DNA from: a virus
Virus record (IMG/VR): IMGVR_UViG_3300047323_000304
Location: 62,001 to 126,000 of that record
Direction: 5' to 3' (one strand)
Length of the DNA stretch: 64,000 nucleotides
Shown: in pieces, positions 3,760 through 44,379 of the stretch
Numbering within the stretch: position 1 is the first letter of the stretch
Layout: each line of letters opens with the position of its first letter
Made by a program: the position numbers and the translations under genes
The notes under the pieces: model-generated
What the model was told of the DNA's origin: nothing
The model's database searches: none
The model's input: the letters and a program-made list of their open reading frames with translations, nothing else

Positions 3760-3764
3760 CTATA

Positions 3765-3792
3765 ATTATACACTTTTAAAAATATATGTCAA
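3765..3792 (-). promoter_or_regulatory. leftward promoter for the small RNA
   Basis: TTGACA, a 16-base spacer and a perfect TATAAT. It lies between the bidirectional terminator and the holin-like gene and points toward the latter. Confidence 0.55.
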
Positions 3793-3797
3793 TACTT

Positions 3798-3865
3798 AAA
3801 TGAGGGACTATTAATAAATTTATTACACTATAATGTGTTTTATTTTTATTAATAGTCCCTCATTT
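3798..3865. terminator. bidirectional intrinsic terminator between convergent gene blocks
   Basis: A perfect 21-bp stem (arms AAATGAGGGACTATTAATAA and complement) encloses a 26-base loop and has an A-run on the left and a T-run on the right. It separates the rightward lysis-like genes from the leftward nucleotide-metabolism genes and can end transcription from both sides. Confidence 0.9.
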
Positions 3866-3873
3866 TTTCGATT

Positions 3874-4050
3874 TTATTTTTCTAGTAATTCAATTAATTT
3901 CTTATGACATATATCAAATGCTTGCCTTTCTCCTAAATCTACAAGATCATTTGGGTGTTTGTTATAAGATTCATTAGATTTATTTCTTAATTGTTCAATT
4001 TCATCTAATAAATCCCATAAATCACTTCTTAACTGTTGGTAATCATCCAT
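3874..4050 (-). CDS. small hypothetical protein downstream of folA
   Basis: A 58-residue helical, charged protein (MDDYQQLRSDLWDLLDEIEQ... ending LIELLEK). GGAGAT precedes the ATG at good spacing, and the gene ends just before the terminator, as the last gene of the thyA-folA transcript. It has no cysteines, signal or membrane segment. Function unknown. Confidence 0.6.
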   Translation of the reverse strand: MDDYQQLRSDLWDLLDEIEQLRNKSNESYNKHPNDLVDLGERQAFDICHKKLIELLEK

Positions 4051-17097: not shown

Positions 17098-17146
17098 TTT
17101 ATTCATCCTTTCTTTATAATTTATTTAATAATTTATCACTCATTAA

Positions 17147-17272
17147 CTATACAATTATAACTGTTCCTATCAATCTTAAATACGTAATATCATTTACTAT
17201 AAATATACTGGTTAAAAGTAATATATCTAATGTCAATCCTAATCTTTTTCTTTTGGTCATTCGTTTATTCAT
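17147..17272 (-). CDS. 41-residue membrane peptide
   Basis: MNKRMTKRKRLGLTLDILLL and onward: a very basic N-terminus followed by two short hydrophobic stretches. GAGGT precedes the ATG, which lies one base beyond the stop of the secreted 3D-domain gene, so the two are coupled. Function unknown. Confidence 0.45.
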   Translation of the reverse strand: MNKRMTKRKRLGLTLDILLLTSIFIVNDITYLRLIGTVIIV

Positions 17273-17273
17273 A

Positions 17274-17861
17274 CTATTTTACCTCATTTACTATGTACCC
17301 ACGTATCTTTTTAACTCCATAAGAATTTGCTCGTTTCTTCCACTGTTCTCTAGTCTCACCATCTAGTCTGGTAACATATAAATCTATGTGGTTAGAATTA
17401 TTAAAATTATTTCCACCTTTATCTGAAACAATCCTTAAACCATAATCTTTTTCTAAAAATATTTTAGTTCCTAATGGTAATACATTATTTGCAATGACTC
17501 CTCTTTCTAAAGGTTTTCCCTTACAATCTACATTTCCATGTATACTGTTTTCTTCTTCAAGTCCTGTATAAAAACTGACTGTAAACTCTTGCCATTGTGG
17601 TTCATTTATCTTTTGTTCTTCTAACTCTTTCTGATTTCTCAGTCGTTCTTTTTCAGTTTTCTTTTTATCTAGTTCCAATTTGTCTTTTTCAAACTGTTCT
17701 TGTATTGGATTGATTAATAATCCAAATCTATCTTTATGTACCATTCCCTCTGTATCTTTTACAACTACTTGCGTTGTCTGGAACGGTGATATGTTGCTTT
17801 CTGTTGGAAATGTGAAAAGTAAAGTTATAGAAAGCATACATACAATCCTGTTCTTCAACAT
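17274..17861 (-). CDS. secreted 3D-domain protein (RlpA/MltA-like barrel)
   Basis: A 195-residue protein with a signal peptide or membrane anchor at 1-25 (IVCMLSITLLFTFPTESN), a charged coiled coil (~55-85) and a C-terminal 3D domain. The double-psi barrel signature is visible: FTVSFYTGLEEEN, GVIANNVLPLGTKIFLEKD, then VSDKGGNNFNNSNHIDLYV with the aspartate cluster. Such domains occur in peptidoglycan lytic enzymes and resuscitation/sporulation factors of Firmicutes, so a cell-wall role is likely. Carried by the phage, it may remodel the wall of an infected or lysogenic cell. Confidence 0.75.
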   Translation of the reverse strand: MLKNRIVCMLSITLLFTFPTESNISPFQTTQVVVKDTEGMVHKDRFGLLINPIQEQFEKDKLELDKKKTEKERLRNQKELEEQKINEPQWQEFTVSFYTGLEEENSIHGNVDCKGKPLERGVIANNVLPLGTKIFLEKDYGLRIVSDKGGNNFNNSNHIDLYVTRLDGETREQWKKRANSYGVKKIRGYIVNEVK

Positions 17862-34834: not shown

Positions 34835-36409
34835 TTATTTTGCTCTAGTATCTACATGAGAAACGGTACAGAAAGCTACCTCACGCCAACGATTCCAAGC
34901 TCCACTAAATTCTTGAACAATGCATTTGTCATCTTCATCTGCTCTGGTTTTACATAGGAAAAATATTCTGTATTGTTTTGTAGTATCTAATTGTATGTAT
35001 TCCTTTGTTTTTAACCATTTTCCTGTTTTATCATCCTTCATAAACCTATAAGGTTTTATATCATATTTTTCTTCTGCAAATTCATCTGGAAATATCTTTC
35101 TGAATAGTACCATTTGTGTAACAACTTCTTTTACTGCTTTTGCTTCAGATAGACAACTTGAATTAGTATACCTCACGTTCTCAGTATGTATTGCACATTG
35201 CATTACTATAGTTATTGCAACTTTATATTTTTTAGCTAGTTGATGAAGAGTTTTAGAAGCTTCTATTAATTGCCCCCTACTGTTCACATCTTGCATATTT
35301 CCTGCTTTAAATGTGTCGTATATGTAATAGCCTACTCCTTGTCTAGACATTCTTCTAACTATAATCTTCATAGTGTTCATATCATAATTATCTATATCAG
35401 CAAATTTTAATTTTCCATAATAGTGTTCTCTATAATATTTTTGTGCTTGTCCTATCATGTTTTTTTGCTCTTCAGAGAACCCCCCTTGTTTTAAATGTTT
35501 TCTAGTTAATCCATAATAATCAAAATGATAAGCTAAAATCATAGGCAATATTATTGCTTTATAATCATCTATATTCATTTCATTTGCTATAATACAAACT
35601 TTTTCATTTTGATAAATAATTGGCATAACTCTTTCTGCTAATATCCAACTAGACTTGCCACATCCACTATATGCACCTATTAATTCGGTATAACCTTTAT
35701 GTATTCCTAATGTAGAAGCGTTTAATATAGGACTTCCATATATAGATTTCCCATGAATATCTGTTCCAATAATATCATAAGGTAAACCCATCATTTGTCC
35801 ACTATCACAAGCTTCAATAAATTTATCATCTAAATCTAAATCAACTATTTTTGTATTACCCATAGTCTTATCCATTGTTAATGATTGTACTCTCCAGTCG
35901 TACCATTCTGAAACTTGTGTTGAAGTCATACTATGGAATAATTCAAATGGAATTACTATTTTTTCTTTTTCTCCATCTTTTATAGTTACTTTATTAAAAA
36001 TATTAAATCCTTCATTATATAGTCCTATAATTATATTTGATTTAAAAACATCATCTATATATGAATGAATATTTGCAACGTTCATTGTATCTATTAATGA
36101 TTTAATATTTTCATATCCACCTTTAGATTCAAATTTATCTCTTAACATTTCATGTGTCTGTATATAGGTTGTTACTGTTATTTCATCAAATGCCTCATAT
36201 CCTTGTTGTGCCATCTTTTTACCTAAGGCATAGTAATATTTCCCGTCCATACTTGTAAAACACTCAGAGTTTAAGTTATTATAATCATCATACAAATCTG
36301 GATTTTTCCATAAACAACCTATAACCTTTCCTTCTTGTTCTATTCTTCCATTTAATAATCTATCATCCAAATCTTGATATTCTGTTAAAAATAAATTTTT
36401 GTCAATCAT
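34835..36409 (-). CDS. dnaB: replicative DNA helicase (DnaB-like)
   Basis: A 524-residue RecA-fold helicase. The N-terminal helical domain (~20-130) resembles the DnaB primase-interacting region. Walker A is GAYSGCGKSSWIL (~254-266); Walker B corresponds to GYYIYDTFKAGN; a following TIVMQCAIHTENVRYTNSS segment fits motif H3/H4. The C-terminus has CKTRADEDD. With primase, polymerase and Sak4 genes beside it, it would unwind the phage replication fork. Confidence 0.85.
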   Translation of the reverse strand: MIDKNLFLTEYQDLDDRLLNGRIEQEGKVIGCLWKNPDLYDDYNNLNSECFTSMDGKYYYALGKKMAQQGYEAFDEITVTTYIQTHEMLRDKFESKGGYENIKSLIDTMNVANIHSYIDDVFKSNIIIGLYNEGFNIFNKVTIKDGEKEKIVIPFELFHSMTSTQVSEWYDWRVQSLTMDKTMGNTKIVDLDLDDKFIEACDSGQMMGLPYDIIGTDIHGKSIYGSPILNASTLGIHKGYTELIGAYSGCGKSSWILAERVMPIIYQNEKVCIIANEMNIDDYKAIILPMILAYHFDYYGLTRKHLKQGGFSEEQKNMIGQAQKYYREHYYGKLKFADIDNYDMNTMKIIVRRMSRQGVGYYIYDTFKAGNMQDVNSRGQLIEASKTLHQLAKKYKVAITIVMQCAIHTENVRYTNSSCLSEAKAVKEVVTQMVLFRKIFPDEFAEEKYDIKPYRFMKDDKTGKWLKTKEYIQLDTTKQYRIFFLCKTRADEDDKCIVQEFSGAWNRWREVAFCTVSHVDTRAK

Positions 36410-37054: not shown

Positions 37055-38224
37055 TTAATTAAGTTTTTGTAATATTTCTTCCATACCTTCTGTTAAGTTG
37101 TTTTCAACATCACTTATTTTTTCAATATTATACTTTTGCATTATCTCTTTAATATCAGCCTTCAATTCTTTTGAAGTATCTTTCCATTTTGAAGTTACTA
37201 TTTTTTGTATTTCTTTATTTCTTTCAACATTTATCTTGTTTGTTTCTTCTTCACTTGTTTTTATTTTATTTAATTCTTCCTTGATTTCATTTTTTCTATC
37301 TACTTCAGCTTTTTCTTTTAATTGTTCAAAATCTTCATCTGAAACATTCTTTCTCATAGAAGCTTTAATTCCATCTTCTATCGCTTGTATAAATCCACTA
37401 GCAGATAGTTCGACCTTTTCTACTATATCCTTAAATCTTGTTCCAGCTTTAACAAAATTACTTTCTCTGAAATATATGTATCTCTTTGTTCCATTTAATA
37501 CACCATCTTTTACATTCTTATCTATTTGTATAGTAGCAATGACGTCTGCTTTATGAGCAATAATATTATCAAGTCTGCTATCTAAGTTAGATGTAAGCAT
37601 GTTGTAAGACTCATCATCTGTCATTCCTTTTTCTTTAATAGTTTTAACTTTTGTATGTGATATTACTACAGGAGTTAATCCACAACTTCTCAATCTATAA
37701 AGTTGTTCATCTACTATTTCAGCTAATTTATCAAATCCCCCACTAAATCCTCCAAAAGCACTGTTTATACTTGATACTTTTTTAGTTGGGTTAGCATCAT
37801 TATGAAGCTTTACTACATAATTTTTTGCTATTTCACAAAGTTCGTCATATGTATCTATACCAATTATTTCAATTCCATTTTCTTCTCTCCCATCAACTAA
37901 ATCATCGATTAATTTAACAAATTCTTCCCAACCATATCCACTCTTAATTATTTTTCCTTCATTGTCTTTGATTTTAGTAATTATAATTCCATTCTTATCT
38001 TTTATATCTTGAATTACTTCATATTGAATATCAGGTAATGTTTTAAATCCATCTTCTCTCCCACATGATATTAATAATCCTTTTGATTGATCTCCATTAA
38101 ATATTTCATTTATTAAATCATAGAAAAGTGTAGTTTTTCCTGATTTTTCAACACCTCTTAAATAGTAGTAATATCCTAATATACTTGCCTTAACTTCATT
38201 TTTCTTAAAACTTCTTCTTGCCAT
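37055..38224 (-). CDS. Sak4-like RecA-fold ATPase
   Basis: A 389-residue protein. Walker A is RGVEKSGKTTLFYD (~23-36), Walker B is IEIIGIDTYDEL, and TPVVISHTKVKT fits the third RecA-fold motif. This is the AAA_24/Sak4 family of phage single-strand annealing and recombination proteins. A lysine/glutamate-rich coiled-coil tail (~290-389) is additional. It pairs with the putative single-strand binding protein encoded just upstream. The ATG after AAGGAAAT was preferred to an earlier one. Confidence 0.82.
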   Translation of the reverse strand: MARRSFKKNEVKASILGYYYYLRGVEKSGKTTLFYDLINEIFNGDQSKGLLISCGREDGFKTLPDIQYEVIQDIKDKNGIIITKIKDNEGKIIKSGYGWEEFVKLIDDLVDGREENGIEIIGIDTYDELCEIAKNYVVKLHNDANPTKKVSSINSAFGGFSGGFDKLAEIVDEQLYRLRSCGLTPVVISHTKVKTIKEKGMTDDESYNMLTSNLDSRLDNIIAHKADVIATIQIDKNVKDGVLNGTKRYIYFRESNFVKAGTRFKDIVEKVELSASGFIQAIEDGIKASMRKNVSDEDFEQLKEKAEVDRKNEIKEELNKIKTSEEETNKINVERNKEIQKIVTSKWKDTSKELKADIKEIMQKYNIEKISDVENNLTEGMEEILQKLN

Positions 38225-38325
38225 AATTATATTTCCTTCTTTCATAATTTATTATTTTTATTTTATTACTATATGAATTTGACTTCTCTGAGTTCAATTA
38301 ATTCATAGTTCTCAATTATTAATTA

Positions 38326-41323: not shown

Positions 41324-41485
41324 TTACTTAGATATTGGAGTTTCAAAAACAACTTTTATTGGTTCTTTTCCTATACTAGAAAATACTGTTCTGTCATTAT
41401 ACATTACAACTTTTGTACCTGAATTATGACTTTCTACCATAGTTGTAACTTTGTCATCTTCCATAATTACTGTTGATTTACTCAT
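41324..41485 (-). CDS. 53-residue protein behind a structured leader
   Basis: MSKSTVIMEDDKVTTMVESH, then a beta-rich remainder ending FETPISK. AAGGAAG precedes the ATG. It is preceded by two promoters, an operator-like repeat and a ~165-base leader with several hairpins, which is exceptional control for such a small gene. No domain recognised. Confidence 0.6.
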   Translation of the reverse strand: MSKSTVIMEDDKVTTMVESHNSGTKVVMYNDRTVFSSIGKEPIKVVFETPISK

Positions 41486-41523
41486 TATCATTCACTTCCT
41501 TTATTTAATTATTTAAGCTATAA

Positions 41524-41650
41524 TTTGCTTAAAAGAACAGGCTAATTTACCATTTAGCTAATGTTCTCCGATATTAAATTTAATATCTACCCTTGAAATG
41601 TTCTATTTCTATTTGAGTATTTCTACTCTTTTAAGCAAACTGTTCTTTAC
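41524..41650 (-). promoter_or_regulatory. multi-hairpin structured leader RNA (riboswitch-like candidate)
   Basis: Read on the minus strand, a 13-bp closing helix (41627-41639 with 41524-41536) encloses four hairpins: GAGTA/TACTC, GAAAT/ATTTC, the 18-base palindrome GATATTAAATTTAATATC, and a two-part stem GAACA-TTAGC/GCTAA-TGTTC. A competing 9-bp helix (AAAGAACAG at 41640-41648 with CTGTTCTTT at 41532-41540) excludes part of the closing helix. The transcript start predicted from the promoter falls at ~41653, so the whole structure lies at the 5' end. No known riboswitch class is recognised. Confidence 0.55.
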
Positions 41651-41659
41651 TACTATCTT

Positions 41660-41688
41660 AGTATAATCTATCCAATTCTTATTGTCAA
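41660..41688 (-). promoter_or_regulatory. promoter for the structured leader
   Basis: TTGACA, 17-base spacer, TATACT, directly after GATAAATTAAAAAGAATAC. Its start point lies just before the structured leader. Confidence 0.8.
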
Positions 41689-41836
41689 GTATTCTTTTTA
41701 ATTTATCTTGTTTTGATAAAACAGACTTTTTAACAACTCTTTATCCTTAAAAACTAGAGTATTTGCAAGCATTCAGTAGTATGAGTGAGGTTTAAAATTC
41801 ATATTTTTGTATTTTTATGTATTTTGACTTGTACAC

Positions 41837-41879
41837 CTTGGCACTATTTCATTATAATGCCAAGATTATACAATATCAT
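41837..41879 (-). promoter_or_regulatory. promoter with operator-like inverted repeat
   Basis: ATGATA, 17-base spacer, perfect TATAAT. The -10 box is framed by perfect 7-bp arms CTTGGCA and TGCCAAG. A repressor binding there would occlude the promoter. It reads toward the structured leader and the 53-residue gene. Confidence 0.5.
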
Positions 41880-41900
41880 GTATTATTTTTATTTTGTCTT

Positions 41901-42327: not shown

Positions 42328-44379
42328 TTAAAATTTTATTTTTAGTGTTCTTTCTGTTTGACCTTTAACCTTGACAATTAATTCATTTCTCTTTGTTGAA
42401 CTAAATCCTAATCCTGATAACTGATCTTCTACATCTTCTACTCTCATTTTACTACCTAGTGCCTCAAAAACTCTTTTATGTTTCATTAAATCTTCTTTCA
42501 AGAATTCGTTGTAAAATCCATTAGGTTGTTCTGGATTTACACAATCCTTTAACATAAACATATAATGTCTATGACCGATTCCATCTTGTTCATTCCAATA
42601 GTTAGGTGAATAACACATAACTGAAACTGGTACAAAATTATTTGTTTTTAAGTTCCATACGTCTTTTGATGATACACTTGATGGTAATTTTTCTTTAATT
42701 GTAAATCCTGTATTTTTATTAAAATTAACTTCTGCTACTTGAACATTTTCACCTTGTCTTAATTCTTTATTGTACTCAAAAGAGAATACTTGCCCATCAA
42801 ATTCAATTTCTGCTTTAAATCCTGTTCTTCCACCTCTGTTAGTAAAGTTATGAACAAAGAATTTATATGTTCCTTCTTCCATTCTATCTCTATCAGTCCA
42901 TGTTATATTTTCAACTGCTGGAACATTTCTATCTGGATTAATTATATCCACGTCTAATTGTCCTGTAGTATATCTATTTACTTTACTACTATAATAAATT
43001 TCATTTCCACTTGGTTCATAACAATGAGCGTCTAAATCATTTCCATCATATTCATTATCATTCCATTGAATTGAAAATCTTAATACCCCTTCTACATTTC
43101 CACCTGCTGATTTAACTCTGTCTTTCATTGAACTATCTGTTATATTTCCTGAATAAGCCCAACTAAAGTTGTTATCCCACTTAAACATTGTTTTACTATT
43201 TATATCTTTAGGTGCTATAAGTGATACCATATTACCACTATGTTTATTTTCTAAGTATACTTCAATTTCTTTAGCTGTTGGTAATACACCATTTACAAAA
43301 CTATCTATTGAAATTTCTTCAACTTTTGAGAATTTTTTAGGATTAGTAGATACTTCACTTAGCATTTCATCAAATACATTTGCATTAGATATTCTCTTTG
43401 CAGAATCCTTGTTAGAGAATAATATATTATTTACTGTTATATCATCTAATGTTGCATATCTTCTGCCTAATGAGTCCATATAACCAAGTTCTTGTATAGT
43501 TTTTTGTGCATCTTCTAGCATTTTCTTTGTAAATATTGCTTTTGGACGTTTATAATTGCTAGGAGCTACAATGACTTCATATTTTTTTACTGCTGTATCT
43601 AAATCCATTCCTTCGCTTACATTTATAAGTAGTGTTCCTATAGAATGATTTCTTATTCTTCCAATTGCCCCACCAGCTTTTACTGATTGTTCCCATGCAT
43701 AAATTTCTTTTTCTTCTTGTGTTTGTAATTTATCATAAACTTTCTTGTATTTAAGGAATTCAGTTAAAACACCTTTCCATTCTTCACCTTTATATAAAGT
43801 GTTTGAAGATATTAATTCTAATATAGTTAAAATTGATTCTTCTGTAATTTCATCTAAAGACCTTTTGAATACATTTCTTGTATCTCTATATCCACCTTTT
43901 ATATCACCTTCTGATCTCGCACTTGAATCAACAAATCTGTCTGGTAATTCTAAGTAGAAATGTTGCCATTCCATTATGTTTCCATTTGCTAATTGTTCAA
44001 AGTTTTTATCTGTTCCAATCTTTTTCATTTTACTAACATAAATATCTGTAATAGCTTTTGATTTAACATATTCAGATAATGCATCTGCCACAGGTTGGAA
44101 AGTTGTACTATTTGTTTCAAAATCCCATATTGTAGTAACCGTATTGTCTTTAACAACAACTGCATTTCCAAGTGTTTTTATAAATTGTCTGCAACAACTA
44201 CAATCATATTCTCTTCTTTCTCTGTAAAGTTCATTAGTACCTTCTGGGAAGCTATCCAAGTATAAGTTCCATAATTCGTCTTTGTCTACATTCACCTCAA
44301 ATAACTTGTCTGCATCTTTTGATACCTTTGCAAAATTTTCTTGTAATCCTTTTTTAAATTGTTTGAATTGATCTTCCAT
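42328..44379 (-). CDS. large protein with YfaP-like beta domain
   Basis: A 683-residue protein of unknown function, the longest orphan in the window. The N-terminal part has a CSCC cluster ([16 protein letters not shown]). A beta-sandwich-like domain at ~430-550 ([20 protein letters not shown], then [19 protein letters not shown] and [17 protein letters not shown]) resembles the YfaP/DUF2135 fold found in surface or VWA-linked proteins. The C-terminus is basic. It has its own strong promoter. A structural, nucleoid or takeover role are all possible; no catalytic motif is visible. Confidence 0.65.

What the first reader, a model, noticed from the sequence alone, without database searches (positions are those of the whole stretch)
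41524..41653. Elaborate, possibly switchable leader RNA before a 53-residue gene
Seen directly: a 13-bp closing helix, four internal hairpins (one an 18-base perfect palindrome) and a competing 9-bp helix that reuses part of the closing helix. The promoter at 41660-41688 places the 5' end at its edge, and a small gene follows. Two exclusive folds at the 5' end of an mRNA are what a riboswitch, thermosensor or protein-binding leader looks like. The hexamer TGTTCT also recurs at 41562, 41599 and 41641, with its complement at 41534, so iteron-like or operator roles are alternatives. I recognise no known RNA class.
Basis: partly seen in the sequence, partly recalled or inferred. Interest (0 to 1): 0.75.

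Follow-up and report, generated by a model that had tools for sequence, protein, structure and literature searches.

The report
Orphan structured phage mRNA leader
Just after a strong promoter and just before a tiny phage gene lies a 120-base stretch that would fold into a stable five-way RNA junction; the fold is real by computation, but it has no relatives in anything searched and shows no sign of being a switch.

Summary
A strong sigma-70-type promoter points through it into a 53-codon ORF with a Shine-Dalgarno site, so it is most likely a structured 5' leader.

The 'switch' part does not hold up. The 9-bp alternative helix has about 1% occupancy and costs 3.4 kcal/mol. Neither fold hides the ribosome-binding site, and no terminator was found there. 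No homologue was found in Rfam, phages, plasmids or IMG/VR, by a single-sequence covariance model in 33 related phage records, or at 28 syntenic loci. The decisive test (compensatory changes) therefore cannot be run. Structured intergenic DNA is common in this phage; this stretch ranks sixth. Iteron and origin readings get no support.

Best reading: a lineage-specific leader module in a variable part of the genome, probably a 5' stability or protein-binding element. Low interest.

Side finding: a conserved, uncatalogued ~175-nt leader upstream of antirepressor-type genes in this phage and in two further sequence variants found in nine IMG/VR contigs.

The parts
41683..41688 (-). -35 hexamer TTGACA
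   Evidence: 17-nt spacer to the -10
41660..41665 (-). -10 hexamer TATACT; transcription start inferred near 41653
   Evidence: start position inferred from usual spacing, not measured
41640..41648 (-). AAAGAACAG near the 5' end: 5' half of the 9-bp competing helix, unpaired in the main fold
41627..41639 (-). 5' arm of the closing helix (UUUGCUUAAAAGA), extended by G-U and A-U at 41640-41641 on this strand only
41615..41628 (-). Arm 1: GAGUA-GAAA-UACUC hairpin with a GNRA-type loop
   Evidence: fold and sequence
41595..41609 (-). Arm 2: weak 5-bp hairpin holding the second AGAACA
41570..41587 (-). Arm 3: 18-base perfect palindrome GATATTAAATTTAATATC (7 pairs formed)
41533..41568 (-). Arm 4: compound arm GAGAACA...UGUUCUU enclosing GCUAA...UUAGC; shares its last bases with the closing helix
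   Evidence: base-pair probabilities
41524..41536 (-). 3' arm of the closing helix (UCUUUUAAGCAAA)
41532..41540 (-). 3' half of the competing helix, CUGUUCUUU (P about 0.01)
41495..41499 (-). Shine-Dalgarno GGAAG, largely unpaired in the ensemble
   Evidence: sequence
41324..41485 (-). Small ORF of 53 codons (55 from the first ATG at 41491), unknown function; one 38-aa paralogue in the same phage

Best explanation
The stretch from about 41653 to 41486 (minus strand) is the 5' untranslated leader of the mRNA of a small phage gene. It is made from a strong host-type promoter and folds, essentially one way, into a stable closed domain: a closing helix and four arms. The domain sits between the 5' end and an open ribosome-binding site. 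The most likely role is a 5' stability or protection element that shields the short transcript from decay acting from the 5' end, possibly with a bound protein. It is not a two-state riboswitch. Shown by computation: anatomy, excess stability, promoter quality and orientation, open RBS, absence of detectable relatives. Inferred: that the leader is transcribed, its exact 5' end, and its role in stability.
For: Fold better than all shuffles and sixth among intergenic segments. Promoter of 11/12 with 17-nt spacer; such sites in this phage lie between genes in 18 of 27 cases and 16 of those 18 are co-oriented with the genes. The main fold dominates (first seven closing pairs P 0.98 in the leader alone), SD bases AAAGG 0.94-0.98 unpaired. 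GNRA-type loop and G-U/A-U helix extension exist only on the transcribed strand. A hairpin at or near the 5' end is known to stabilise long downstream regions of mRNA in B. subtilis (PMC3997798).
Against: The plus strand folds as well or better (z -5.4), so the strand is not decided by folding. About 12 nt at the inferred 5' end are unpaired in the main fold, which is not ideal for a 5'-end protector. No homologue and hence no covariation. Hairpins after promoters are not a general feature of this phage (p 0.49). No transcript data.
Confidence: 0.42

Rival explanations
1. A regulated leader: a protein (phage or host) or another ligand binds the domain and shifts the pairing of the single UGUUCU among its three AGAACA partners, changing expression of the small gene.
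For: Three AGAACA copies and one UGUUCU in the leader; a hexamer this repeated occurs in 1.6% of shuffles. Competing 9-bp helix. Multi-arm junctions are a common shape of sensing RNAs (own knowledge).
Against: Competitor P about 0.01 and 3.4 kcal/mol worse; neither fold hides the SD; same fold 25-37 C; no terminator in the leader; no match to any Rfam family.
Confidence: 0.2
2. Incidental AT-rich inverted repeats: the leader is transcribed but its structure has no function.
For: Structured intergenic DNA is common in this phage (57 segments with z below -2.7). No conservation in 28 syntenic loci or 33 related records. G+C 26% makes long A-U helices easier.
Against: z -3.9 to -5.4 with dinucleotides preserved; 13-bp repeat in 1 of 300 shuffles; sixth-ranked in the genome.
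Confidence: 0.18
3. A DNA-level element: the repeats act in double-stranded or single-stranded DNA, as an operator, a replication origin near the replication genes (helicase 34835-36409, Sak4-like 37055-38245), a recombination site or the relic of a mobile element.
For: Both strands fold equally well; perfect palindrome and repeats; replication genes a few kb away.
Against: Base skew does not turn here; it turns near 66 kb and 174 kb of the record, while the site is at 103.6 kb. TGTTCT is common in the window and irregularly spaced here. No second copy in the genome.
Confidence: 0.15
4. The leader is a trans-acting antisense RNA to the conserved leader of the phage's antirepressor-type gene (G000:C1 about 17142-17316).
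For: 13 contiguous complementary positions (one G-U) covering its UCUCCG loop (sequences), next to the only paralogue of the small gene.
Against: A composition-corrected scan ranks this match third in the genome, and shuffled queries reach the same score. The window leader is not recognised by the model of that RNA.
Confidence: 0.05

Closest known systems
5' mRNA stabilising leaders of Gram-positive bacteria (e.g. B. subtilis aprE leader; review PMC3997798)
   Same: Structure near the 5' end, open ribosome-binding site downstream, no need for a ligand
   Different: Here a multi-arm junction rather than one stem-loop; about 12 nt precede it; stabilisation not measured
Riboswitches and RNA thermosensors
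   Same: Structured 5' leader with a competing helix
   Different: No expression platform found: SD open in the ensemble, no terminator, competitor at about 1%, no temperature response between 25 and 37 C; no Rfam family
The conserved antirepressor leader found in this phage and relatives (L037, L055, L087; uncatalogued)
   Same: Same phage, strong promoter, long structured leader, close to the paralogue of the small gene; an 18-nt near-match on the opposite strand
   Different: Different sequence and fold; the window leader does not score above background with its model
Phage T4-type origins (promoter plus unwinding element) and iteron origins
   Same: Promoter followed by repeats, replication genes within a few kb
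   Different: No skew turning point, irregular repeats of a hexamer common across the window

Membership tests
Known RNA families (Rfam 15) | Covariance-model match at gathering score | tested here: not met
   No match in the window; relaxed search gives only scores far below the cut-offs
Riboswitch / thermosensor | Two folds of similar stability | tested here: not met
   3.4 kcal/mol gap, competitor P about 0.01
Riboswitch / thermosensor | Expression platform: SD sequestration or terminator coupled to one fold | tested here: not met
   SD AAAGG 0.94-0.98 unpaired; no terminator there
Riboswitch / thermosensor | Conserved ligand-binding core with compensatory changes | not testable with these tools
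   No homologue found
5' mRNA stabiliser | Stable structure at or near the 5' end of the transcript | tested here: inconclusive
   Stable domain starts about 12 nt from the inferred 5' end; 5' end not mapped
5' mRNA stabiliser | Longer mRNA half-life with the leader than without | not testable with these tools
   Needs an experiment
Antirepressor leader of this phage group (model R2) | Match to its covariance model | tested here: not met
   No score above background at 41524-41653 with filters off
Iteron origin | Regularly spaced repeats confined to one site; skew turning point | tested here: not met

The most novel reading that the evidence does not exclude
The leader is a new phage regulatory RNA: a five-helix junction in which one UGUUCU chooses among three AGAACA partners, and which also pairs in trans with the conserved leader of the phage's antirepressor-type gene, linking the small gene to the phage's regulatory decision.
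Probability: 0.05. Interest if true: 0.65.

Novelty: new member of a known kind. Interest (0 to 1): 0.27.

Why it matters
If it is a real leader RNA, it shows that this large phage carries a lineage-specific structured leader on an accessory small gene, as a promoter-leader-gene module at a variable site. It has little wider reach until relatives are found. The conserved antirepressor leader met on the way is a better candidate for a new RNA family.

Tried and rejected
1. Switch reading: rejected on energies and on the lack of an expression platform. 2. Homology to the antirepressor leader, from the shared ATGTTCTCCGAYATYAAA on the opposite strand: at first promising because it lies beside the paralogue of the small gene, but a composition-corrected genome scan ranks it third and shuffled queries do as well, and model R2 does not find the window leader. 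3. A general rule that promoters of this phage are followed by 5' hairpins: single cases suggested it, but 25 promoters against 249 controls gave p 0.49. 4. Genome-wide RNA-RNA duplex search: uninformative, long AT-rich duplexes dominate. 5. Closing-helix pattern search in IMG/VR and GTDB genomes: five hits, none with the same arms. 6. Origin: skew turns elsewhere. 7. tRNA or tmRNA: none found in the window. 8. Mini-ORFs in the leader: a 9-codon TTG ORF without an SD, and AUG-GUA-AAU-stop 12 nt after GGAG; judged incidental.

Full report
What is there. The window is 62001-126000 of a 193.9-kb virus record that is AT-rich (26% G+C). The finding lies in a 409-nt non-coding stretch (41492-41900) between a 130-aa phage protein (phrog_2018) and a small ORF; next to the former is a 683-aa conserved phage protein (phrog_1735). 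The closest named relative of the latter is in Clostridioides phage pCD1602_4, 64% identical. The genes around it run on the minus strand, as base skew also shows.

Observation. All elements were confirmed at the stated coordinates. On the minus strand the region folds into a closing helix with four arms: a GAGUA-GAAA-UACUC hairpin, a weak 5-bp hairpin, the 18-base palindrome, and a compound arm. Energies beat all 200 dinucleotide shuffles on both strands (z -3.92 and -5.42). A 13-bp repeat at this spacing occurs in 1 of 300 shuffles of the intergenic stretch. In a scan of this phage's intergenic DNA the site ranks sixth of 57 non-overlapping segments with z below -2.7 (20 shuffles each, so these z values are rough). 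So the structure is real, but structured intergenic DNA is common in this genome.

Strand and transcript. TTGACA-17-TATACT at 41688-41660 is a good host-type promoter. Sites of at least 11/12 with 17-nt spacing fall between genes in 18 of 27 cases, and 16 of those 18 point the way of the genes. A start near 41653 is inferred from usual spacing. The GNRA-type loop and the G-U/A-U extension of the closing helix exist only on the minus strand; a G-U pair in arm 4 exists only on the plus strand, so the strand evidence from folding is mixed. I saw no well-spaced promoter for the plus strand.

Switch or not. In the leader alone the first seven pairs of the closing helix have P 0.98; the inner pairs share bases with arm 4. 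The 9-bp competitor has P about 0.01 and its best fold is 3.4 kcal/mol worse. The SD bases AAAGG are 0.94-0.98 unpaired, and the fold is the same from 25 to 37 C. No terminator is found in the leader. A two-state riboswitch or thermosensor is therefore not supported. During transcription a transient 5' hairpin precedes the closing helix, which is ordinary.

Relatives. No Rfam match at gathering score, and only weak chance-level scores when relaxed. Blast found nothing convincing in phages or plasmids. A pattern of the closing helix in IMG/VR and in GTDB genomes gave five hits without the same arms. A covariance model of the single sequence found only itself at E below 0.5 in 34 phage records, own record included. 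In 28 syntenic loci with the same two upstream genes the longest comparable repeat is 10 bp against 13 here, and in the three that I read (L014, L002, L011) other small genes occupy the site. The small protein has no relatives found in the phages collection or IMG/VR except a 38-aa paralogue in the same phage (E 4e-4). The module is thus lineage-specific, in a variable part of the genome, and compensatory changes cannot be looked for.

The antirepressor leader. Beside the paralogue, at G000:C1 about 17142-17316, lies a much better conserved RNA candidate. It is about 175 nt, 93% mean column identity over three distinct sequences, with two pairs of one hairpin showing changes on both sides. It stands upstream of a Bro-N gene here and of an ORF6N/KilAC antirepressor in L087, each time behind a promoter-like TTGAC... 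sequence. It contains a hairpin with the loop UCUCCG, complementary to the GGAGA/GGAGG of the gene's own ribosome-binding site, and a 20-bp helix whose 3' strand has an alternative partner. Rfam has no match at gathering score. In logic, not in sequence, it recalls the C4 antisense RNA that controls the P1 antirepressor (own knowledge; not tested for membership). A shared near-match of 18 bases on the opposite strand of the window's leader tempted me to link the two, but it is no better than chance and the model does not recognise the window leader.

Mechanism. The best-supported reading is a transcribed leader whose closed domain separates the 5' end from an open ribosome-binding site, as in 5' stabilisers known from Gram-positive bacteria (PMC3997798). 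Protein binding is possible. I give this 0.42; a regulated leader 0.2; incidental sequence 0.18; a DNA-level element 0.15; a trans-acting RNA 0.05.

Verdict. Observation confirmed, interpretation partly supported, interest low: an orphan structured leader of a kind already known.

Noticed in passing
L037:1745-1920 (G000:C1 about 17142-17316), L055:2990-3166, L087:13348-13519: Conserved, highly structured leader of about 175 nt upstream of Bro-N / ORF6N-KilAC antirepressor-type genes, in this phage and two further sequence variants over nine IMG/VR contigs; no Rfam match at gathering score; a hairpin loop UCUCCG is complementary to the gene's own Shine-Dalgarno GGAGA/GGAGG. Possible new RNA family.
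   Followed up: partly
L045:4300-4540 (G000:C1 about 189300-189540): A very long imperfect hairpin covering most of 200 nt, fold energy -76.5 kcal/mol.
   Followed up: no
window 3760-3880: A long near-perfect hairpin (about 21 pairs) directly upstream of a promoter-like TTGACA...TATAAT-type sequence on the minus strand; z about -9 on both strands.
   Followed up: no
window 41835-41865: Hairpin CTTGGCA...TGCCAAG in the same intergenic stretch, after the 130-aa gene, z about -8.3 on the minus strand only.
   Followed up: no
window 42328-44379 (-): 683-aa protein of unknown function (phrog_1735), matched in 487 phage records over very diverse hosts, from Clostridioides to Klebsiella and Caulobacter; it is followed by phrog_2018 in most IMG/VR relatives fetched here.
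   Followed up: no
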